Below, one piece after another: positions 48,149 through 59,760 of a DNA stretch of 64,000 bases (position 1 is its first letter; each line of letters begins with the position of its first letter). Made by a program: the position numbers and the translations under genes. Source of the DNA: Streptomyces sp. SDr-06 (GTDB taxonomy: Bacteria > Actinomycetota > Actinomycetes > Streptomycetales > Streptomycetaceae); contig NZ_QOLA01000001.1 in NCBI RefSeq assembly GCF_003324565.1, forward strand, positions 248,001-312,000, in the 5' to 3' direction. Below the pieces are notes generated by a model. The model was not told where the DNA came from and did no database searches. It was given only the letters and a program-made list of their open reading frames with translations.

Positions 48149-49699
48149 ATGACGAGTTCGCAGCCGACACCCACGACCGAGACCGCAGCCCCGGGCAGCA
48201 GAGGCGGCGGCAAGGGGATCGCGCTCCTGGTCATCGCCTCGTGCCAGTTGATGGTGGTGCTCGACGTCACCATCGTGAACATCGCCCTTCCGCACATCCA
48301 GAGCGCACTGCGCTTCTCGACCACCGGCCTGGCCTGGGTGGTCAGCGCCTATACCCTGACCTTCGGCGGGCTGCTCCTGTTGGGTGGCCGGACCGGCGAC
48401 ATCCTCGGCAGGCGCCGGGTCTTCATGTGCGGCGTGTTCCTCTTCGCGCTCGCCTCCCTGCTCGGCGGCCTGTCGCAGAACTCCGGCCAGTTGCTCGCGG
48501 CCCGCGCGGTCCAGGGCGTCGGCGGCGCGATCGCCTCGCCCACGGCGCTGGCCCTGATCACCACGACGTTCACCGAAGGACTTGAACGCAACCGGGCGTT
48601 CGGTGTCTTCGCCGCCGTCTCCGCGGGCGGCGGCGCGATCGGCCTGCTCGCGGGCGGCATGCTCGTCGAATGGCTCGACTGGCGCTGGGTGTTGTTCGTC
48701 AACGTGCCCATCGCCGTGCTCATCCTGCTGGCCACCCCGCGCCATATCCAGGAGTCGGAGCGCCATTCCGGCCACTTCGACCTCGCCGGGGCACTGACGT
48801 CCACGCTCGGCATGGTCGCGCTGGTCTACGGCTTCATCCGAGCTGCCCAGGAGGGCTGGCGCGACCCGTTCACGCTGGGGTCGTTCGCCGCCGCGGTCGT
48901 GTTCCTCTCCGTCTTCGTCCTGGTGGAGCGCCGCTCGCGGCAGCCGATCACCCCGCTGCACATGTTCGCCGACCGCAACCGCGCGGGCACGTACGGCATC
49001 ATGCTGAGCCTCGCCGCCGCCATCTTCGGCATGTTCTTCTTCCTCACCCTGTTCGTCCAGGACGTGCTCGGCTTCACCCCGCTCCGGGCCGGGCTCGCCT
49101 TCCTTCCGGTGAGCGCGATCATCGCGGTCGGCGCGGGCCTGGCCTCGCAGCTGCTGCCGCGCTACGGCCCCAAGCCCTTCATGGTGACGGGCGCGATCCT
49201 GGCCGCGGGCGGGCTGGCGTGGCTCACCCAGACGGACATCCACTCCACCTATGCGGGAAGCATCCTGGGCCCGATCCTCGTCTTCGGTCTGGGCATGGGC
49301 ATGAACTTCGTCTCGCTGACCCTCATGGCCGTCTCCGGCGTCCCCCCGCACGAGGCCGGTGCTGCGTCCGGCATGCTCAACGCCACGCAGCAGGTGGGTG
49401 GTTCGCTCGGCCTGTCCATCCTGGTGACGGTGTTCGGCACGGCCAGCCGGAACGAGGCGACCGACCAGATACCCAGGTTCCTGGGCCAGGCCGACCCGGC
49501 GCAGCGTCAGATGTTCCGGCGGACGGGGCAGCTTCCGCGGCCCTGGAGCGATCAGGTCCTCACGTCCGGAGTGTCCACGGCCTTCATCGTGGCCGCCATC
49601 TTCGCGGTGGTGGCCGCGCTGATCGCGCTGCTGGCGATCCAGGTGCGCCCCTCCGACCTCGAACGTCTTCAGGGCGCCCGGCCCACCCCCGGCCATTGA
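48149..49699 (+). CDS. MFS multidrug efflux transporter, DHA2 type
   Basis: A 516-residue protein with fourteen predicted membrane segments. Helix 1 holds the D1 motif LMVVLDVTIVNIALPHIQ, motif A is GGRTGDILGRRRVFM and the DHA2 stretch GLLAGGMLVEWLDWRWVLFV follows. A large drug:proton antiporter of EmrB/QacA type. No regulator is adjacent. It could export a metabolite made nearby, but nothing in the sequence links it to one. Confidence 0.92.
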   Translation: MTSSQPTPTTETAAPGSRGGGKGIALLVIASCQLMVVLDVTIVNIALPHIQSALRFSTTGLAWVVSAYTLTFGGLLLLGGRTGDILGRRRVFMCGVFLFALASLLGGLSQNSGQLLAARAVQGVGGAIASPTALALITTTFTEGLERNRAFGVFAAVSAGGGAIGLLAGGMLVEWLDWRWVLFVNVPIAVLILLATPRHIQESERHSGHFDLAGALTSTLGMVALVYGFIRAAQEGWRDPFTLGSFAAAVVFLSVFVLVERRSRQPITPLHMFADRNRAGTYGIMLSLAAAIFGMFFFLTLFVQDVLGFTPLRAGLAFLPVSAIIAVGAGLASQLLPRYGPKPFMVTGAILAAGGLAWLTQTDIHSTYAGSILGPILVFGLGMGMNFVSLTLMAVSGVPPHEAGAASGMLNATQQVGGSLGLSILVTVFGTASRNEATDQIPRFLGQADPAQRQMFRRTGQLPRPWSDQVLTSGVSTAFIVAAIFAVVAALIALLAIQVRPSDLERLQGARPTPGH

Positions 49700-50270: not shown

Positions 50271-50504
50271 GCCACCCGAATCGCGGCGGACGGGACGGCC
50301 GGGTCACCGCTGTCCCAACTCGCTTACACAGAACGGCACTTCAACCCCCGCCTGGATGCACACCGGGGCGCCGGAGAGCGCGGTACCGCGCCGCCCGTGC
50401 TGCTTCGCGCCGGGTTCCGCGCCTGCGGGGTGGGGAGGATATTCGGGATCCGGGGACGACGAGAGCCCCACCCTCGGCCGATTTCCTTCCGGAGGTATCC
50501 CGCC

Positions 50505-51863
50505 GTGAGCACGACGCTTCCCGCGCGTACGGGAAAGGCCCCAGGAGCCTGGCCGCTGCTCGGTCACGCCTGGCAACTCCACGCACGCCCCTTGGAGTTC
50601 CTGTCCTCGCTCCCCGCCCACGGGGACCTCGTACGCATCGGAATGGGTCCCTGGCCGGCGTACGTGGTCTGTGAGCCCGGCGCGGCCCACCGCATGCTCA
50701 CCGACTCGCGTACCTTCGACAAGGGCGGGCCCTTCTTCGACAAGGCCCGGGTGCTCTTCGGCAGCAGCCTGCCGATGGCCGGCTGGCAGGAGCACCGCTG
50801 GCAGCGCCGCCAGATGCAGCCCGCCTTCCAGAGCGACCGGATCGAGCGGTACGCCGTGGTGATGGGCGAGGAGGTCGACCGCATGACCGGCCGCTGGCGG
50901 CCCGGCCTGCGCCTGGACGTCACCGCCGCGCTGACCACCCTGACCCTGCGCATCGTCACCCGCAGCGTGCTCGCCGCCGAAGCCCAGGACGAGGCCGTCG
51001 CCGAGGTCCAGCAGAGCCTGCACACCGTCATCGACGGCATCTACCAGCGGGTGATGCTGCCCCTGGGCCCGCTGTACCGGCTGCCCACCCCGGCCAATCG
51101 CCGCTACCGCCGCGCCTGCGACCGGCTGCACCGGGCCATCGACGGCATCGTCGCCGACCGCCGCGCGGCACCGGGCGGCGACGACCTGGTCTCCATGCTG
51201 CTGGCCGCGCACGACGACGACACCGGCGAGCCGATGAGCGACGTGGACATCCGGGACCAGCTCATGGTCATGATCGGTGCCGGGTTCGAAACGACCGCCA
51301 ACAGTCTGGCGTTCGCCCTGTGGCTGCTCAGCCAGCACCCGGAGGCCGAGGCACAGGTGCACGCCGAGGTCGACCGGACGCTGGCCGGACGCACCGCCAC
51401 CACCGGCGACCTCGACGGCCTGCAGTACACCCGCCGTGTCATCAACGAGGTCCTGCGCCTGTATCCGGCGGGCTGGTTCTTCACCCGCGTCACCACCGCC
51501 GACACCACCCTCGCCGGGAGCCACCTCCCGAAGGGCACCGCTCTCCTCTACAGCGCCTACCTCCTCCACCACCGTCCCGAGCTGTTCCCGGACCCGGATC
51601 GGTTCGACCCCGACCGCTGGGCCACCCAGAGCGCCGACACGCTGCCCCGGGGCGCGCTGGTCCCCTTCGGCGGCGGAAACCGCAAGTGCATCGGCGACCA
51701 GTTCGCCCTCATCGAGATGACGCTGGCCCTGGCCACGGTCTGCTCCCGCTGGTCCCTGCACCCCGACCCCGGCAGCACCATGACCGTCCAGGTCCGGGGC
51801 ACCCTCGGCCCCGGCCCCCTGACCATGACCTGCCGGCCCCGCGGCACGTCGGCCGACGGCTGA
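50505..51863 (+). CDS. Cytochrome P450
   Basis: A 452-residue P450 starting at GTG 50505 behind GGAGG. The I-helix oxygen-activation motif is GAGFETTA (258-265), the K-helix ExxR is E315-V-L-R318, and the heme-binding loop is FGGGNRKCIG with Cys395 as iron ligand. The layout is that of long-type bacterial P450s (CYP102/183-like) that hydroxylate lipids or terpenes. No redox partner or terpene cyclase is adjacent. The next gene is decayed. Confidence 0.92.
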   Translation: MSTTLPARTGKAPGAWPLLGHAWQLHARPLEFLSSLPAHGDLVRIGMGPWPAYVVCEPGAAHRMLTDSRTFDKGGPFFDKARVLFGSSLPMAGWQEHRWQRRQMQPAFQSDRIERYAVVMGEEVDRMTGRWRPGLRLDVTAALTTLTLRIVTRSVLAAEAQDEAVAEVQQSLHTVIDGIYQRVMLPLGPLYRLPTPANRRYRRACDRLHRAIDGIVADRRAAPGGDDLVSMLLAAHDDDTGEPMSDVDIRDQLMVMIGAGFETTANSLAFALWLLSQHPEAEAQVHAEVDRTLAGRTATTGDLDGLQYTRRVINEVLRLYPAGWFFTRVTTADTTLAGSHLPKGTALLYSAYLLHHRPELFPDPDRFDPDRWATQSADTLPRGALVPFGGGNRKCIGDQFALIEMTLALATVCSRWSLHPDPGSTMTVQVRGTLGPGPLTMTCRPRGTSADG

Positions 51864-52703: not shown

Positions 52704-53339
52704 ATGGTCGACCCGGGCAGCACGTACCCGCCCAACCAGCGCCGCAAGAAAGGGGGATGCCTCCCCGCCCTGGTGATTCTCGCGGTGATCCTGGGTCTCG
52801 GCTTCGGCGCGTCCAAGCTCTTCGGCCACGACAGCTCGTCCACATCCGCTTCGCACGACAGCGGGGGGTGGAAGGTGGGTGACTGTGGAGGGCCCGACCC
52901 CGACGACGCGCCGAACGGCTACAAGCCGCTCGCCTGTGACGCGTCGGGCGCCACCTTCAAGGCCCTTGACGTGCAGGGCGCCAGTTTCATGCCGGACGCC
53001 ATCCAGTGTCCGGCCGGCACCGACCTCATCGTCCAGGTGAGCGTCAGTTACGGCAAGAAGAGCAAGGGCGGCGGCATCCCCTCCAAGACGATCTGCGGAC
53101 GCAACCTCTCCGCCAGCCACCCAGGCGATCCCGGCGCCGGCGGCGGCCAGTTGGTCAAGGGCGACTGCGTCACGTCCACGGCGAAGGAAGTCCCCTGCGC
53201 CTCGGCGGGCGCGGGGGCGTACAAGGTGCTCGACCTCACCAAGGAGACGTCGCAGTGCCCGGCGGGAACCACCGAGCCCATGCGCCTGACCATGGCCCTC
53301 GGCCGGCCCTACGACGTGATCTGCGCGGCGAAGCAGTGA
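52704..53339 (+). CDS. Membrane-anchored secreted protein, LppU-like, 211 aa
   Basis: Starts at ATG 52704 behind AGGAGGGG. A short cytoplasmic Arg/Lys stretch is followed by one membrane segment (residues 18-37, CLPALVILAVILGLGFGASK) and a Ser-rich linker. Two repeats of a small extracytoplasmic domain follow, each with a GDC start and a PLAC or PCA motif (for example WKVGDCGGPDP and VKGDCVTSTAKEVPC). Six Cys suggest disulfides. Similar to LppU-type proteins of streptomycetes. Function unknown. Confidence 0.75.
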   Translation: MVDPGSTYPPNQRRKKGGCLPALVILAVILGLGFGASKLFGHDSSSTSASHDSGGWKVGDCGGPDPDDAPNGYKPLACDASGATFKALDVQGASFMPDAIQCPAGTDLIVQVSVSYGKKSKGGGIPSKTICGRNLSASHPGDPGAGGGQLVKGDCVTSTAKEVPCASAGAGAYKVLDLTKETSQCPAGTTEPMRLTMALGRPYDVICAAKQ

Positions 53340-53356
53340 CGGGCCGCCGCCAGTAG

Positions 53357-53393
53357 CCCTGCCCCTGCGGCTACTTCAGCCGCAGGGGCAGGG
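53357..53393. terminator. Perfect 16-bp hairpin shared by convergent genes
   Basis: CCCTGCCCCTGCGGCT (53357-53372) and AGCCGCAGGGGCAGGG (53378-53393) pair perfectly around ACTTC. The stop codon and last codons of the P450 gene at 53371 lie inside it, so the terminator is built into the coding end. Confidence 0.88.
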
Positions 53394-54570
53394 AGAGCAG
53401 GCCGCGATGGCGGGGGTTGGCCTGCCACCGCGCCTCGTGGTCCTCGCTCAGCCGCAGCCCGGGGTGGCGGGTCAAGAGGTGCCTGAAGGCGATCTCGGCC
53501 TGGAGGCGGGCCAGCGGAGCACCCAGGCAGTGGTGGATGCCGTGGCCGAAGGCGAGGTGCCGGGTGGCGTCCTGCCGGCCGATGTCGAACCGGTCGGGGT
53601 CGGCGAACACCCGGGGATCGCGGTTGGCACCGAGCAGCGAGACCTGTACGAACTCGCCCTCCCCGATGGCCGCGCCCCCGGCCATGACGGGTTCGGCGGC
53701 GTAGCGCAACGACGCGAGGCCCGAGGGGGATTCGTAGCGCAGGATCTCCTCGACGGCACCCGGCAGGAGCGTCAGGTCGGCCCGCAGCGCGGCGAGTTGA
53801 TCGGGATGGGCAAGCAGGGTGTAGATACCGTTGGCGATCAGGTTGACCGTGGTCTGGTGGCCCGCGACGACCAGGAGGAAGGCCATCGAGGTGATCTCGT
53901 CCTCGGTCAGCGCCTCCTCGCCCTCCTCGTCCGCCCGGAGCAGCGCGGACAGCAGACCGTCGTCGGGCCGTTCGCGTTTGAGGACGAGCAGCGCGCGAAG
54001 GTAGGCGGCCATGGACTCGGCCGTGAACACCGACACCTCGCCGTCGCCCTGGCCGCCGTCGAGCGTGTTGCCCCGGATCCGCAACGCCTCGTGGTCGGCG
54101 TCGGACGCGCCGAAGAGGTCGAACATCACGGCCAGCGGCAACGGCAGCGCGAACTCGCTGATCAGCTCGGCCTCGTCCCGGCCCTCCCACGCGTCGAGCA
54201 ACCCGGTCACATGGGCTTCGATCATGGGGCGCAGGGCTGCCGTGCGGTGGGCGGTGAACGCCTTCTGGACGAGCTTGCGCAGCCGGGTGTGGTCCGGCGG
54301 ATCGGAGTTGAGCATGTGGGTGAACAGGGCACGGCCGGGGCCCTGGGTGAGGCCTACGTGGCGGCCGAACCTCTCCACCGCCCCGCCCTTGGCGAGCCGC
54401 CGGTCGGCCAGCAGCCGCTTCGCCTCGGCGTAGGAGGTGACGACCCAGCCCTCGACCGGGGCCGGACCCGGGTACCGGGCCTGGCGCACCCCGCCCTTTT
54501 CGCGCCACTGCCGGTAGGTGGCGTGGGCGTCATCGTAGAAGGACGGATCGAGTGTCTCGATGTCAGACAT
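53371..54570 (-). CDS. Cytochrome P450, second P450 of the WYFWY peptide cluster
   Basis: A 399-residue class I bacterial P450 from ATG 54570. The I-helix motif is AGHQTT (236-241), ExxR is E275-I-L-R278 and the heme loop is FGHGIHHCLG with Cys348. Its start overlaps the upstream P450 stop by 8 bases, so translation is coupled. With the short precursor gene it forms a three-gene minus-strand unit. It may add a second cross-link or a hydroxylation to the peptide. It could also be an unrelated tailoring P450 recruited to the operon. Confidence 0.92.
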   Translation of the reverse strand: MSDIETLDPSFYDDAHATYRQWREKGGVRQARYPGPAPVEGWVVTSYAEAKRLLADRRLAKGGAVERFGRHVGLTQGPGRALFTHMLNSDPPDHTRLRKLVQKAFTAHRTAALRPMIEAHVTGLLDAWEGRDEAELISEFALPLPLAVMFDLFGASDADHEALRIRGNTLDGGQGDGEVSVFTAESMAAYLRALLVLKRERPDDGLLSALLRADEEGEEALTEDEITSMAFLLVVAGHQTTVNLIANGIYTLLAHPDQLAALRADLTLLPGAVEEILRYESPSGLASLRYAAEPVMAGGAAIGEGEFVQVSLLGANRDPRVFADPDRFDIGRQDATRHLAFGHGIHHCLGAPLARLQAEIAFRHLLTRHPGLRLSEDHEARWQANPRHRGLLSLPLRLK

Positions 54571-55630
54571 GGCGCACCTTGCTCCGGTGGCCGACATGGA
54601 CGGTCTTCACACCCAGGAGCCCCACCAGGGGTACGTCGGCGGACCGCTGCCCCGGGGCGACCACGAGGCCGGTGCGGCGGATGTGGTCGAGGAGGAGTTC
54701 GGCGAGCGGCATGACCATGTGGCGGCCCCAGCACCGTTCCGAGACGTGCCCGAACGGCATGTATCCGGGGGTGTTGTCCGGGTCGAGGCCCTCCCACCGC
54801 TGCGGGCGGAACTCGTTCGGGGCCTCCCACAGGGCGGGGTCGCGGTGGGTGAGGAGCGGCAGCATGAGGAGGTCGTCCTCGGGCCCGATGCGGTCGTCGA
54901 GGGCGGGGTATTCGGGCGACCGGTTGCGCAGGAGGTTCCAGGACGGAGGGAGCAGCCGCATCGCCTCGTACAGGATGTCCCGGTTGGAGACGTCGTCGGC
55001 GAACGGCGAGCCGAGCCACAGGGCGTTCGCGACGAGGGTGGAGACGGTGAAGCAGACCGGGGCGGCCGCGCGGCGGTAGATGCCCATCGCGTAGCGCCGG
55101 TCGTCGTAGCTGCGCGCCTCGGCGAACAGGTTGGCCAGGTGCGTGAGATGGGGCCCCGGCGCGGGCCGGCGGGGCAGCGCCGCCCCGGCCACGATGGTGG
55201 TCCAGGTGAGCCGGGGGTCGATCTCCAGCGTGCGCGACATGAGGACGCGCAGCCGGTACGGGTCGTCGCGCAGGACCAGGCCGCTCAGGAACCGGTGCCC
55301 CGTGATCGGCCACGGCCCCGACAGGTCCGTCGACTCCGGCAGCGGGTTCGGCTGTTCGAGCGCGGCGCGGACGTCCTTGCCGACCGTGCGCATCACCGAG
55401 GACGCCTCCGTCTTGGAGATCGACCGGCCGTGCAGGGGCTTGAAGGTGGGGCGCTCGGTCTCCGTCGCCCGCCTCGCGCCCAGGACGCGGTCGGAGAGTT
55501 CCGCACCGGCGATGCCGATGGTGTCGGGTTCGAGGCGTACGAGGTCCTTGCCGAGGTGCTCGTCCAGCAAGGCCTGGAGGCGCGGGGCGAATACCGTGGT
55601 GCGACGGGGGCGGGTCAAGGCGGGTGGCAT
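54563..55630 (-). CDS. Cytochrome P450 adjacent to the WYFWY precursor, probable peptide-crosslinking enzyme
   Basis: A 355-residue P450-fold protein from ATG 55630 (GGAG nine bases upstream; the longer frame starts inside a hairpin). The K-helix ExxR is E222-A-M-R225, the meander FRPQRW (274-279) and the heme ligand Cys300 in FGHVSERCWG. The loop lacks the usual Gly four residues before Cys, and no acid/alcohol pair is visible in the I-helix. That is common in P450s that act on carrier-bound or peptide substrates. In atropopeptide clusters the P450 next to the precursor makes the C-C and C-N aryl bonds. Confidence 0.88.
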   Translation of the reverse strand: MPPALTRPRRTTVFAPRLQALLDEHLGKDLVRLEPDTIGIAGAELSDRVLGARRATETERPTFKPLHGRSISKTEASSVMRTVGKDVRAALEQPNPLPESTDLSGPWPITGHRFLSGLVLRDDPYRLRVLMSRTLEIDPRLTWTTIVAGAALPRRPAPGPHLTHLANLFAEARSYDDRRYAMGIYRRAAAPVCFTVSTLVANALWLGSPFADDVSNRDILYEAMRLLPPSWNLLRNRSPEYPALDDRIGPEDDLLMLPLLTHRDPALWEAPNEFRPQRWEGLDPDNTPGYMPFGHVSERCWGRHMVMPLAELLLDHIRRTGLVVAPGQRSADVPLVGLLGVKTVHVGHRSKVRHV

Positions 55631-55659
55631 ACGGAGAGCTCCGGAAAATGAAATGCGGA

Positions 55660-55714
55660 GGGCCCGCACACGCAGCTGACCGGAATTCAGTCGGCCTGCG
55701 TTGTGTGCGGGCCC
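55660..55714 (-). terminator. Stem-loop between the precursor peptide gene and the P450 genes
   Basis: GGGCCCGCACACGCAG (55660-55675) pairs with CTGCG...GTGTGCGGGCCC (55696-55714) with a small bulge, 17 bases past the precursor stop. Such partial terminators between precursor and enzyme genes keep precursor transcripts in excess. Confidence 0.7.
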
Positions 55715-55730
55715 GGGATTGGCCTTCGGC

Positions 55731-55823
55731 TTAGTACCAGAAGTACCAGGCGGCCTGCTTCAGGCTGGGCTCGCTCTTCTTGACCGGACCACGGGCGCGC
55801 AGGGCGGCAATAATCTTCGCCAT
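55731..55823 (-). CDS. RiPP precursor peptide, atropopeptide (tryptorubin) type, core AWYFWY
   Basis: A 30-codon gene too short for routine calling. ATG (55821-55823) follows AGGAAGGGA at good spacing; TAA is at 55731-55733. The leader is basic and helical (MAKIIAALRARGPVKKSEPS) and ends LKQ. The C-terminus is AAWYFWY with no follower. The tryptorubin A core, ribosomally made and cross-linked by one P450, is AWYIWY at the C-terminus of its precursor; here Ile is Phe. Two P450 genes follow directly. The exact cleavage site (before A25 or A24) is inference. Confidence 0.85.
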   Translation of the reverse strand: MAKIIAALRARGPVKKSEPSLKQAAWYFWY

Positions 55824-56181
55824 GATGGATCCCTTCCTCTCATGCATATCCGAATGTGAACTGCGGTACCGGGCGCGGCAATTCCGTCACCTGGGGGTAA
55901 CGAAATGGCCATCGCCGACCGCTGAGGGGAAGTGAAGCTGGCCGCGACGAGCGTTGTCAATGGCTGCGCATTTCTTTGCCCGAATGAACCTTGGAGCCCC
56001 TGGGGAACCTCTCGCAAACATTCATTGTGGTGATTCGGAAAACGCTGCCCGAACGGTCATGGGGGCGTGCCCGGATATACCTTTCGACGCCTGTGCGGCC
56101 CTGCTAGCAAGGGAATCCACAGGTAGGCTGAAGGCCGCTCCGGCTTCGAGACCCACGAGTACCAACGAGTGAGGACGCCCC
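55824..56181. promoter_or_regulatory. Divergent intergenic region upstream of the RiPP precursor
   Basis: About 360 bases, noticeably more AT-rich than its surroundings at 55835-56060. It should hold the precursor promoter; ATATGC (minus strand, near 55842-55848) is a possible -10 element. A 72-codon plus-strand frame (55954-56172) with a TTG start has no RBS and is not supported. Confidence 0.4.
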
Positions 56182-56502: not shown

Positions 56503-57486
56503 TCAGGCGCGCAATGCGGACAGCAGCATCGGCAGGGACCTGGCCAACTCGCGCTGCCAGTAGGGCCATTCATGGATGCCGGGGCCGTAGAAATCGGTCA
56601 CGGCCGGGCTGCCGAGGGCACGCAGGCGGGCGGCGAGGGCCCGGTTCTGCTGCTCGAAGAAGGCCTCGCTCGGATCCTTGGCGCCGGGCGGGTCGAACGG
56701 GTCGGCCTTGCCGTTCCCGCAGGACAGGAAGATCGGCAGCCCGCGCAGCGAGTCGGCCTGGACGGTGGGGTCGTGCGCGGCCCACACCGAGCGCTGACGC
56801 ACCGGATCGCCCCAGATGGCATACGGATCGACGCCCACCTGCCGGTCGAGGTTCAGGAACCACTGGGGCCCGAACCCGCCGGGCACCTGGAGCAGCGGGT
56901 GCACGGTTCCGCTGTAGGAGGCGACGGCCCGGAAGAGGCCGGGGTGGTGGGCGGCGTACGAGAGGGCGCCGAAGCCTCCCATCGACAGGCCCGCCGCGAC
57001 GCGCCGTCCGCCCGCGCCGTAGCCGCGCTCGACGATCTGCTTGACCTCGCCGAGGTGGAAGGTCTCCCAGCGGGGCGCGCCGCCCTTGCCGTAATTCCAC
57101 CAGTTGCTGTACCAGCCCGCCGCCCCGGCCTCCGGCATCACGACCAACACATGGCGCAATTGCGGGAGTTGGGCGACGTCCGTGTACTTCGTCCAGTCGG
57201 CGTAGCCTCCGCAGCAGCCGTGCAGCAGCCACAGCGTAGGCCAGTCGTGCCGGCCGGGCGACCAGCCGTCCGGGGTGAGCAGGCGCACGTGCGCGGTCGT
57301 GCCCAGGGCCGGGGAGTCGATGGTGAGATCCAGCTGACGGGGGCCGACATGCCGTTCGGCGACGACCCGCGCTCCGTCGTCGGCCCGTACGGGCCGGTCC
57401 TGCGCATGGCCGGTGCCGCCCGCGAGGGTACTGGCGAGGACCGCGAGCAGGAACGTGACGAGTGTGACGACCGGTACGCGACGCAT
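56503..57486 (-). CDS. Secreted esterase, esterase D/antigen 85 (mycolyltransferase-like) fold
   Basis: A 327-residue protein from ATG 57486. A Sec signal peptide (MRRVPVVTLVTFLLAVLAST, Ala-rich cut near residue 28) precedes the alpha/beta-hydrolase domain. The oxyanion region is WLLHGCCGGYADW, the nucleophile elbow GLSMGGFGAL (Ser), and the C-terminal His is in GPGIHEWPYWQ. Proteins of this fold include antigen 85 and various secreted esterases. In Streptomyces, which lacks mycolates, a secreted esterase is most likely. Confidence 0.88.
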   Translation of the reverse strand: MRRVPVVTLVTFLLAVLASTLAGGTGHAQDRPVRADDGARVVAERHVGPRQLDLTIDSPALGTTAHVRLLTPDGWSPGRHDWPTLWLLHGCCGGYADWTKYTDVAQLPQLRHVLVVMPEAGAAGWYSNWWNYGKGGAPRWETFHLGEVKQIVERGYGAGGRRVAAGLSMGGFGALSYAAHHPGLFRAVASYSGTVHPLLQVPGGFGPQWFLNLDRQVGVDPYAIWGDPVRQRSVWAAHDPTVQADSLRGLPIFLSCGNGKADPFDPPGAKDPSEAFFEQQNRALAARLRALGSPAVTDFYGPGIHEWPYWQRELARSLPMLLSALRA

Positions 57487-57528
57487 CCCGACCCCTTTGT
57501 GTGAGCCCCAGGCTCTGTTGGCACCACC

Positions 57529-57552
57529 GAGCCGTCCGGTGTCCGACGGCTC
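57529..57552 (-). terminator. Second hairpin between the condensation-domain and esterase genes
   Basis: GAGCCGTC (57529-57536) and GACGGCTC (57545-57552) pair perfectly with an 8-base loop. Confidence 0.55.
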
Positions 57553-57604
57553 CAACGGTTTACCAGCCACACCGCTGTGCGCGCGAGAGGCGCTCCCGGC
57601 CCAA

Positions 57605-57680: not shown

Positions 57681-59156
57681 TCAGAGGGTCAGCCGGGTCG
57701 TTTCGCTGCTCGGCCTGGGCGCCGGAACCGCGCGCTCCCCGGGTGCGCGCAGCGGGGTGGGCCGCACGCGGCCGCTGCGAGCGACCGTGGTGATCAGCTC
57801 CCGCAGCTGTTCCACATAGCGATGGATGTTCTTGTGTGCGATCGCCGTGTCCGGGTAGCGGATGGCCAGGTGCAGCCCCCCGTGCAGGCGGGTGAACCAG
57901 GCACACACCTGGTCCCCGTAGGAGACCCTGAGCATGGCGTACGCCTTCTGCTCGTCCCACTGCCGGGCCCCCGGGATGTCCCGTGCGTCGACGAACGACA
58001 CGATCGAGTAGAGATCGGGGGACGTCGGGCGGAAGTCCGAGCCGAGCAGACGCAGCACGCGGGCGATCGGCAGATGGGCGAGGGACTTGTTGGCCCGCAG
58101 CGCGCCGTGGACCATCGTGAGGGCGTCGTCGAAGCCCAGCGCCCGCGCCACCGGGATCTCGATCGGCGCACCGCCGACGTACCAGCCCACCGAGTCCGCC
58201 CAGCGTGACTTGGCCCGGGTGTGGAGGGGCACCACGGTGCGGTAGACGGGTTCGCCGCCGATGTCGTGCACGATGAGGCTGGTCGCCGCCAGGATGCCCA
58301 CCTGGCCGCCGCCGAACGGCCGGCAGTACGCGGAGAACGTGGCGGCGTCGGCGTCGTCCACCAGCATCTCGTACAGGAGCTTCTGCTCCGGCAGCCTGCC
58401 GCCGGGTTCGAGGCCCAGGTCCACCGGGAAGGCGGGCAGCCTGCCGTCGCAGCGGGTGATGAACTCCCGCCAGCGCGCAACGATCGCGTGCGTGTCGTCG
58501 ACCTGGTCCGCGCTGGCGCGCTCGATCTCGCAGAAGTCGACATAGCTGCCGACCGGCGCCGCCTCCTCGCTCAGCCCCGCGATCCGCGCGGAGTAGAGCG
58601 CGTGGATCTCGGAGGGGATGCGCTGGATCGAGTACGCGTCGACGTTGCTGTGGTCGAACGCCATGTACACACTGGTGGACTCGTCCCTGGCCACCGCCGT
58701 GTACAGGAAGTTCGGCCAGCCGAGAGCATCCGCCGCCACATCGAAACGGTCCTGGAGATGGTGGCTCAGCTCCTCCCCGTCCGCGAAGTCGCCCACGACG
58801 TCCCGTCGCAGTGCCACGGCGTCGGGCGCGGCCGTGAACCGGCGCATCTCGTCACCGACCCAGCGGAAACCGCTGCGCAGCGTCTCGTGCCGCAGCGTCC
58901 AGGTACGCAGCGCCTCTTCCAGGGCGTCGAGGTCGACGGGCCCGGAGATGTCGAACGCGGCGCCGAGCCAGGTCGGCACGAACAGGCCGTCCCGGCGCAC
59001 CGAACGGGCCGTCCGGATGTGTGATTCCTGCACATAGGCGGGAGGCCGGGAGTCATCGGGCTGGCTTGTGGCCGCCTCGACCATGGCGGGGTCAAGACTC
59101 CACTCGACCAGCCGTCCGGGACGGACCTCGCAGCCGTGAATGTCGGTAATTCGCAC
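57681..59156 (-). CDS. Stand-alone condensation-domain (PapA/WES-like acyltransferase) protein
   Basis: A 491-residue protein starting at GTG 59156 behind GAAGGGAAG. It has the two-lobe condensation-domain fold. The N-lobe begins FDISGPVDLDALEEALRTWT, and the active-site motif is AFDHSNVDAYS, an HxxxD core as in PapA5-type acyltransferases rather than the full HHxxxDG of NRPS C domains. The C-lobe has SVGWYVGGAPIEIPV. No NRPS or acyl carrier gene is adjacent. Likely transfers an acyl or aminoacyl group to an unknown acceptor; a role in modifying a peptide made nearby is only a possibility. Confidence 0.85.
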   Translation of the reverse strand: MRITDIHGCEVRPGRLVEWSLDPAMVEAATSQPDDSRPPAYVQESHIRTARSVRRDGLFVPTWLGAAFDISGPVDLDALEEALRTWTLRHETLRSGFRWVGDEMRRFTAAPDAVALRRDVVGDFADGEELSHHLQDRFDVAADALGWPNFLYTAVARDESTSVYMAFDHSNVDAYSIQRIPSEIHALYSARIAGLSEEAAPVGSYVDFCEIERASADQVDDTHAIVARWREFITRCDGRLPAFPVDLGLEPGGRLPEQKLLYEMLVDDADAATFSAYCRPFGGGQVGILAATSLIVHDIGGEPVYRTVVPLHTRAKSRWADSVGWYVGGAPIEIPVARALGFDDALTMVHGALRANKSLAHLPIARVLRLLGSDFRPTSPDLYSIVSFVDARDIPGARQWDEQKAYAMLRVSYGDQVCAWFTRLHGGLHLAIRYPDTAIAHKNIHRYVEQLRELITTVARSGRVRPTPLRAPGERAVPAPRPSSETTRLTL

Positions 59157-59760
59157 GGGAGTCTTCCCTTCACAAGCTGTCGGGGAGCGCGGGCGGGCAG
59201 CAGGCCGAGGGGGCCGGATCCGCCGCGGGGGCACGCCCGCGCGGGCCGGTCCTCCGGGCCGCCTCCGGGGAACCCGCCGGGCAGAGGGCGCGATGCGGGC
59301 GGGCACGTACGTCCGCGTGTTCCCGGGGCCTGTCCCGGGGCGGGCGTGCCGCAGCGAACCGGTCAAGGGCCGTTCCGCCGGAGCGGACGCTCTTCAGGGG
59401 GCCCGTGAACCCCCCTGCCTGTACACGGAGTTCATCCCGTTCGCGCCCCCGTCCCCGTTGCGCGATGGGGCCAACGCCCGGGGAGGGGCGCGCCGTTCGC
59501 GGAGCCGATCGGGGCGGGAAGGCGGCAGCCGCGTACCGCAGCTCAGGAAATACGGTCATGCGGTGACCAACGCGCGATGAGCGCTCTCGGGCACGCAAAT
59601 CCACCCCATCGAGTCGCGTGCGCCACCCCGCGCGCCATCACGCCCCGGACGCGCCCCGCCGCTCCCCCGCCGCCGAGGGCCCCCTACGACGGCGAACTGA
59701 CCACGCGCCCAAGCGCCTTGCTCCCCTCGCGCGGTGGGGGGCGGAGGAAGGCGGCGGGAG
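59157..59760. other. Long GC-rich intergenic region
   Basis: About 600 bases with only spurious frames, none having an RBS or protein-like composition. The stretch next to 59157 holds the promoter of the condensation-domain gene; I see no repeat or RNA structure that stands out. Confidence 0.5.

What the first reader, a model, noticed from the sequence alone, without database searches (positions are those of the whole stretch)
53371..55823. Compact atropopeptide-like RiPP cluster: a 30-aa precursor ending in AAWYFWY plus two cytochrome P450s
Seen: a short minus-strand gene with a good RBS, a basic leader and an extreme C-terminus of six aromatic/alanine residues, followed by a stem-loop and two overlapping P450 genes, all within 2.5 kb. 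Known: tryptorubin A and the other atropopeptides are made from precursors whose C-terminal core (AWYIWY in tryptorubin) is cross-linked by a P450 encoded next door. Inferred: this cluster makes an AWYFWY-core atropopeptide, possibly new because of the Phe and because a second P450 is fused into the operon.
Basis: partly seen in the sequence, partly recalled or inferred. Interest (0 to 1): 0.93.

Follow-up and report, generated by a model that had tools for sequence, protein, structure and literature searches.

The report
Two-P450 atropopeptide cluster with AWYFWY core
Three adjacent bacterial genes encode a 30-residue peptide ending in AWYFWY and two cytochrome P450 enzymes that are predicted to staple its aromatic rings into a rigid cage, making this a likely new member of a recently described family of peptide natural products.

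Summary
The minus-strand cluster is a 30-aa precursor (PSLK anchor, core AWYFWY), a 355-aa P450 (B1) of the atropopeptide-modifying kind, and a 399-aa P450 (B2) overlapping B1 by 8 nt. The nearest described system is the laurentirubin (lau) cluster: precursor, family P450, and a second P450 credited with a Trp-O-Tyr aryl ether. Window B2 falls in one clade with S. laurentii and MMG1121 P450s (59-64% identity). AWYFWY is not new: 19 of 106 distinct loci with a readable core have it, 15 of them with an intact adjacent B2; MMG1121, named in the defining paper, has both. New as far as I could check: (1) this B2 clade has Gln in place of the conserved I-helix acid; (2) a strong hairpin between the precursor and B1 genes recurs across the family; (3) Phe at core position 4 goes with B2, but too few independent contrasts exist to prove it; (4) this subclade's leaders score below NCBI's tryptorubin cut-off. 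Predicted product: AWYFWY minus 6 H, [M+H]+ 929.362, or 858.325 without Ala.

The parts
55831..55840 (-). Ribosome-binding site AGAGGAAGGG of the precursor gene
   Evidence: sequence; 7 nt before ATG
55731..55823 (-). Precursor gene A, MAKIIAALRARGPVKKSEPSLKQAAWYFWY
   Evidence: NF038372 tryptorubin_fam 24.7 bits, below cut-off 33; homologous ORFs in 79 of 80 loci
55758..55769 (-). PSLK leader anchor motif (residues 19-22)
   Evidence: sequence; motif list of PMC11450843
55734..55751 (-). Core AWYFWY (residues 25-30)
   Evidence: same core in 18 other distinct loci
55660..55714 (-). Hairpin in the A-B1 spacer, 12-bp outer stem GGGCCCGCACAC/GTGTGCGGGCCC; proposed attenuator or processing site
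54563..55630 (-). P450 B1 (355 aa), atropopeptide-modifying type; heme motif FGHVSERCWGRH
53371..54570 (-). P450 B2 (399 aa), LauB2-like; I-helix AGHQTT with Gln239, heme motif FGHGIHHCLG

Best explanation
This cluster of a 30-residue precursor gene and two cytochrome P450 genes is predicted to make a Phe4 analogue of laurentirubin, an atropopeptide likely cross-linked by four bonds. Likely steps: the leader and its PSLK anchor dock the precursor on B1; B1 joins the core AWYFWY as in tryptorubin (Trp2-Trp5 C-C, Trp2-Tyr3 C-N, Trp5-backbone C-N; net -4 H); B2 then closes an aryl ether between Trp5 and Tyr6 (net -6 H in all); host proteases remove the leader and often Ala1. The hairpin after the precursor gene likely lowers expression of the P450s relative to the precursor. 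Shown here: the genes and their intact frames, the sequence relationships, the AGHQTT signature and the predicted hairpin. Inferred by analogy with the lau work: every chemical step and their order. Phe4 is expected to be a bystander.
For: All three criteria of the published family definition (class P450, KSLK-type motif, Trp2) are met by sequence. B1 is 71% identical to the P450 of MMG1121, which PMC11450843 names as found by AtropoFinder. The unit A-B1-B2 is shared without the wider context by L005 and L007-L009. Window B2 lies in one supported clade with S. laurentii and MMG1121 P450s, and all 20 intact adjacent B2s carry AGHQ(T/S)T. In the lau cluster A+B1 gave tryptorubin B and A+B1+B2 laurentirubin B (PMC11450843). 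The mass arithmetic used here (895.3773, 824.3402) matches the reported lau ions 895.3760 and 824.3401.
Against: No product was seen. The precursor scores below NCBI's cut-off. B2's nearest solved structures are ordinary macrolide-type P450s. The S. laurentii proteins were found without genomic context and I do not know that one of them is LauB2; the paper gives LauB2 as 28% identical to TryB, which I could not repeat. The core is AWYFWY here and, by formula, AWYIWY in lau; PMC11450843 shows that similar P450s can give different bridge patterns (varsorubins), so the bond set is not certain.
Confidence: 0.72

Rival explanations
1. Same family and same B1 chemistry, but B2 hydroxylates or otherwise oxidises the tryptorubin-like intermediate instead of closing an ether.
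For: B2's best PDB matches are hydroxylases such as PikC and a P450 hydroxylase, 5cje; bacterial P450s of this kind mostly hydroxylate (general knowledge).
Against: It sits in one clade with the S. laurentii and MMG1121 P450s, and LauB2 gives a net loss of two H, not a gain of O; the I-helix acid is replaced by Gln throughout that clade.
Confidence: 0.15
2. B1 installs only one bond (a scabrirubin- or cihunamide-like monocycle) and B2 adds a second, so the product is simpler than laurentirubin.
For: Some atropopeptide P450s give one bond, and one BGC gives several patterns (PMC11450843).
Against: B1 belongs to the subtree that also holds the MMG1121 P450, and the lau pathway, which the paper matched to MMG1121, makes three bonds with B1 alone.
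Confidence: 0.1
3. Coincidence: the short ORF is not a gene and the two P450s serve another pathway (for example with the esterase, condensation-domain protein or third P450 nearby).
For: No Pfam hit for the 30-aa ORF; a third P450 gene lies 1.5 kb away.
Against: 79 of 80 B1 relatives have such an ORF upstream; the WYFWY-stop pattern occurs in 8 of 392 genomes, all with B1, reversed control 0; L005 and L007-L009 share just these three genes with the window.
Confidence: 0.02

Closest known systems
Laurentirubin (lau) cluster of Streptomyces laurentii (PMC11450843)
   Same: Precursor + family P450 + second P450; S. laurentii proteins 59-62% identical to B2.
   Different: Core by formula AWYIWY in lau, AWYFWY here; leader here of the divergent PSLK subclade. 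LauA/B1/B2 sequences themselves were not held.
Streptomyces sp. MMG1121 cluster (L079), named in PMC11450843 but not expressed
   Same: AWYFWY core, B1 71% and B2 64% identical.
   Different: Canonical leader MKLLFALRNKVSAQKSLKAS (59.7 bits to NF038372) against 24.7 here; different hairpin sequence.
Clusters in Streptomyces WM6378, CB01201, ASQP_92, xanthochromogenes JCM 4612 and NBC_00083 (L001-L005)
   Same: AWYFWY; B1 91-94%, B2 82-86% identical; L001-L004 share the wider gene context.
   Different: Leaders of 26-35 aa (30 here). No product found in the searches made.
Tryptorubin A and the minimal two-gene atropopeptide clusters
   Same: Leader anchor, Trp2 core, one family P450 (introduction of PMC11450843 read).
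   Different: No second P450; tryptorubin core AWYIWY.

Membership tests
Atropopeptides (definition of PMC11450843) | Atropopeptide class-defining P450 | tested here: met
   B1 71% identical to the MMG1121 P450 and in one tree with 105 other loci; heme motif FGHxxERCWGRH fixed in 105-106 of 106 rows at its invariant positions. AtropoFinder itself was not run; TryB was not held.
Atropopeptides (definition of PMC11450843) | KSLK-type leader motif (list includes PSLK) | tested here: met
   PSLK at residues 19-22; list.
Atropopeptides (definition of PMC11450843) | Trp at core position 2 | tested here: met
   AWYFWY.
Atropopeptides (definition of PMC11450843) | Cross-linked product | not testable with these tools
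   Needs expression and LC-MS/NMR.
NCBIfam NF038372 tryptorubin family RiPP precursor | Score at or above 33 bits | tested here: not met
   24.7 bits; 4 other precursors of the subclade 23.9-30.1, 5 canonical precursors 50.1-59.7. NCBI's model would not name this subclade; it is not filed as NF038372.
lau-type (two-P450) atropopeptide clusters | Second P450 of the LauB2 kind directly downstream of B1 | tested here: met
   8-nt overlap; one clade with S. laurentii P0067, P0072-P0074 and MMG1121 P0047. That a held S. laurentii protein is LauB2 itself was not shown.
lau-type (two-P450) atropopeptide clusters | Trp-O-Tyr aryl ether in the product | not testable with these tools
   Needs expression and NMR.

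The most novel reading that the evidence does not exclude
The second P450s of atropopeptide clusters are one dedicated enzyme clade, marked by Gln in place of the oxygen-activating acid of the I-helix, that closes Trp-O-Tyr ethers on an already caged hexapeptide; they co-evolve with Phe at core position 4, and the family's operons are tuned by a hairpin between the precursor and P450 genes that is kept in shape but not in sequence.
Probability: 0.35. Interest if true: 0.55.

Novelty: new member of a known kind. Interest (0 to 1): 0.4.

Why it matters
It is an intact 2.5-kb source of a predicted Phe4-laurentirubin, with close relatives for testing what the second P450 does. The AGHQ(T/S)T signature would let LauB2-type enzymes be told from ordinary P450s by sequence, and raises a testable question: does loss of the acid of the acid-alcohol pair favour cross-linking over hydroxylation? 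The B2 remnants (L029, L102/L149) and B2-less AWYFWY loci (L028, L088/L148) are natural contrasts.

Tried and rejected
Chance ORF: rejected. Phe core as novel: rejected, 19 of 106 loci. Second P450 as novel: rejected (PMC11450843). Phe4-B2 co-evolution as proven: not accepted. Raw counts are strong: intact adjacent B2 in 15 of 19 AWYFWY loci against 5 of 85 others whose downstream side is long enough to see (2 more are contig-edge unknowns); in the survey of 392 genomes 5 of 8 AWYFWY genomes against 1 of 38 other B1 genomes, Fisher p 0.0002 (the Fisher line printed for the loci used 5 of 87). On the tree, where the two edge unknowns were scored as B2-less and remnants as B2, only 4 independent contrasts in Phe exist (6 on all branches): B2 goes the same way in 3.0, the other way in 0.2, median p 0.25; taking 7 contrasts in B2, Phe goes the same way in 3.4, the other way in 0.2, no difference in 3.4. 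Rfam: two hits below gathering score, both on the other strand, taken as chance. Promoter scan: none found. G121 (Streptomyces specialis by its contig length and protein, P0095): a 57% B2-like P450, no B1 in the genome at E <= 1e-80, AGHETT, no W..W/Y-ending precursor-like ORF found near it in 19 kb; outside the Gln clade. A search for papers linking precursor hairpins and P450 RiPPs found none holding all five terms. Rows dropped: L075 (B1 cut by the contig, no precursor) from cores and tree; L075 and L077 (430-nt spacer, two precursors) from the hairpin survey; P0099 and P0100 (330 and 293 aa) from the B2 tree; 20 of 127 loci merged as having the same B1.

Full report
OBSERVATION. On the minus strand the window reads: AGAGGAAGGG, 7 nt, ATG (55823), MAKIIAALRARGPVKKSEPSLKQAAWYFWY, stop; a 100-nt spacer holding a hairpin with a 12-bp outer stem (55714-55660); a 355-aa P450 (B1, 55630-54563); and a 399-aa P450 (B2, 54570-53371) whose start overlaps B1's stop by 8 nt. 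Both P450s match Pfam PF00067.

IS IT REAL. The genome scan with B1 found 86 relatives, 80 kept; 79 of the 80 have a precursor-like ORF just upstream (the miss, L075, has a truncated B1). In 392 genomes drawn from the window's genus B1 (E <= 1e-80) is in 46, and the pattern for WYFWY-stop in 8, all of which hold B1; the reversed pattern gave 0. In DNA comparison (loci reach 6 kb either side, matches over 150 nt, L001-L010 listed) L001-L004 match the window across most of the region, while L007-L009 match only 53367-55790 and L005 53368-56114 plus one 69% stretch elsewhere, so A-B1-B2 behaves as a unit. L006 matches A and B1 only and has no B2 hit. Of 127 loci (80 + 46 + window) 107 distinct B1 remain after merging, 106 with a readable core.

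FAMILY. From PMC11450843 I read the introduction, parts 1-2 of 4 of the results, all of its lau section, the conclusion, part of the reference list and found passages. It defines atropopeptides by the class P450, a KSLK-type leader motif (PSLK is on its list) and Trp at core position 2. All three are met by sequence. NCBI's precursor model NF038372 gives 24.7 bits against a cut-off of 33; four other precursors of the same subclade give 23.9-30.1 and five canonical ones 50.1-59.7. So this subclade, with leaders of 26-38 aa and an insert of varying length before KKSEPSLKQ, is a divergent leader type that NCBI's model does not name. In 106 aligned B1 rows the heme motif is FGHxxERCWGRH with every non-x position the same in 105 or 106 rows; the stretch where I place the I-helix by position reads AAPVCFT and has no acid-alcohol pair (the placement is inference).

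SECOND P450. Intact adjacent B2 genes occur in 20 of 106 distinct loci (15 AWYFWY, 4 AWYIWY, 1 AWYVWY), remnants in 2 (both AWYFWY: L029 keeps the C-terminal part, L102/L149 the N-terminal part); B2-like genes on the other strand upstream occur in 2 (L069, L071), where my pattern did not find the AGH motif; 2 loci end too soon to tell. In the protein database (944 hits at E <= 1e-90, the best 120 listed and used) S. laurentii proteins P0067 and P0072-P0074 are 59-62% and MMG1121's P0047 64% identical. In a tree of 119 of these, 88 rows form a supported clade and all 88 have Gln in the acid position of the I-helix motif (83 AGHQTT or GGHQTT, 5 AGHQST); the 30 rows on the other side all have Glu or Asp; the one row between them, P0097, has no motif that my patterns could read. 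The 20 intact adjacent B2s read AGHQTT (18) or AGHQST (2: L012, L015). The acid-alcohol pair passes protons for oxygen activation (PMC9112060, passages read). That Gln here favours radical cross-linking is my inference; other coupling P450s with altered pairs (CYP121, CYP158A2) are recalled, not checked. In the main text of PMC11450843 the words glutamine, hairpin, stem-loop, terminator, attenuat- and intergenic do not occur; that is the whole of my search for these points in print, besides, whose listings showed nothing on them.

MECHANISM. In PMC11450843 lauA+lauB1 gave tryptorubin B, lauA+lauB2 no atropopeptide, and the whole cluster laurentirubin B with a Trp-2/Tyr-2 ether. By this precedent B1 here would make the -4 H cage and B2 the ether. 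Masses are; the same arithmetic on AWYIWY and WYIWY at -6 H gives 895.3773 and 824.3402, against the reported 895.3760 and 824.3401. PMC12352619 (abstract, introduction and one results section read) shows that the KSLK region and more of the leader matter for one such P450, ScaB. I saw no protease gene between or beside the three genes; the paper says that a ubiquitous protease is believed to free tryptorubin.

HAIRPIN. Over 79 loci (window and L001-L080 less L075 and L077) the precursor-B1 spacer has mean folding z -2.67, 52 of 79 below -2, against -0.47 (10 of 79) for equal lengths upstream of the precursor and -0.09 (3 of 79) inside B1 (60 shuffles for spacers, 25 for controls; a few spacers, such as those of L005 and L006, run into the B1 gene because B1 was taken from its aligned start). 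The loci are related, so the Wilcoxon p values (1e-11, 4e-13) overstate. The stem sequence differs between subclades (for example L079, L020). Within the window's subclade (11 rows, 10 distinct) 95.8% of cells pair, 8 of 12 pairs never vary and 3 change on both sides, each in a single row; 1-3 of 500 shuffles reach four of the five measures but 157 of 500 reach the fifth, and slid versions score up to 0.074 against 0.093 in covariation. So covariation support is slight; the folding excess is the stronger evidence. A role as attenuator or processing site is inferred. The 100-fold gain from a ribosome-binding site added before svaB shows that P450 expression can limit yield.

PHE4 AND B2. The raw association is strong, but the tree needs only 6 changes of Phe and 7 of B2 and gives 4 independent contrasts, so shared ancestry can explain it. 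Two AWYFWY loci lack B2 altogether (L028, L088/L148). All 5 SWYIWY loci lack B2; not pursued.

VERDICT. A well-formed new member of the lau-type atropopeptides with a predicted new product; ordinary in kind, with a few testable regularities around it.

Noticed in passing
window 48149-49699 (+), 50397-51863 (+), 56503-57570 (-), 57681-59366 (-): Neighbours: an MFS transporter, a third full-length P450 (250 bits), a putative esterase, and a protein with a weak lone condensation domain (39.9 bits), by Pfam. One search suggests they belong to the chromosomal context, not the cluster.
   Followed up: partly
L031, L039, L059, L072, L073: All 5 distinct loci with core SWYIWY lack B2, two of these lineages beside B2-bearing ones in the B1 tree.
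   Followed up: no
L029:7043-7666 and L149:4618-5034: B2 remnants: a C-terminal piece and an N-terminal piece, both beside AWYFWY precursors.
   Followed up: partly
L010, upstream of 6001: Precursor MAKKIREAIFGARSFKRVAWYHWY has RSFK in place of a KSLK-type motif, beside a B1 78% identical to the window's.
   Followed up: no
L069:4455-5629 (-): Kutzneria sp. 744: a B2-like P450 reading in two frames on the opposite strand upstream of the precursor (52% and 61% identical pieces).
   Followed up: no
L077: Xanthomonas sp. GPE 39 has two precursor-like ORFs, ending SWPHWY and AWEGYISY; the paper reports clusters with two precursors.
   Followed up: no
window 53299-53394 (+): Match to the sodF sRNA family below its gathering score (33.6 against 46 bits, E 0.011), across the 3' end of B2 on the other strand; probably chance.
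   Followed up: no
L147:8983-10167 (-): A 57% B2-like P450 with the ordinary AGHETT motif in a genome without B1.
   Followed up: partly
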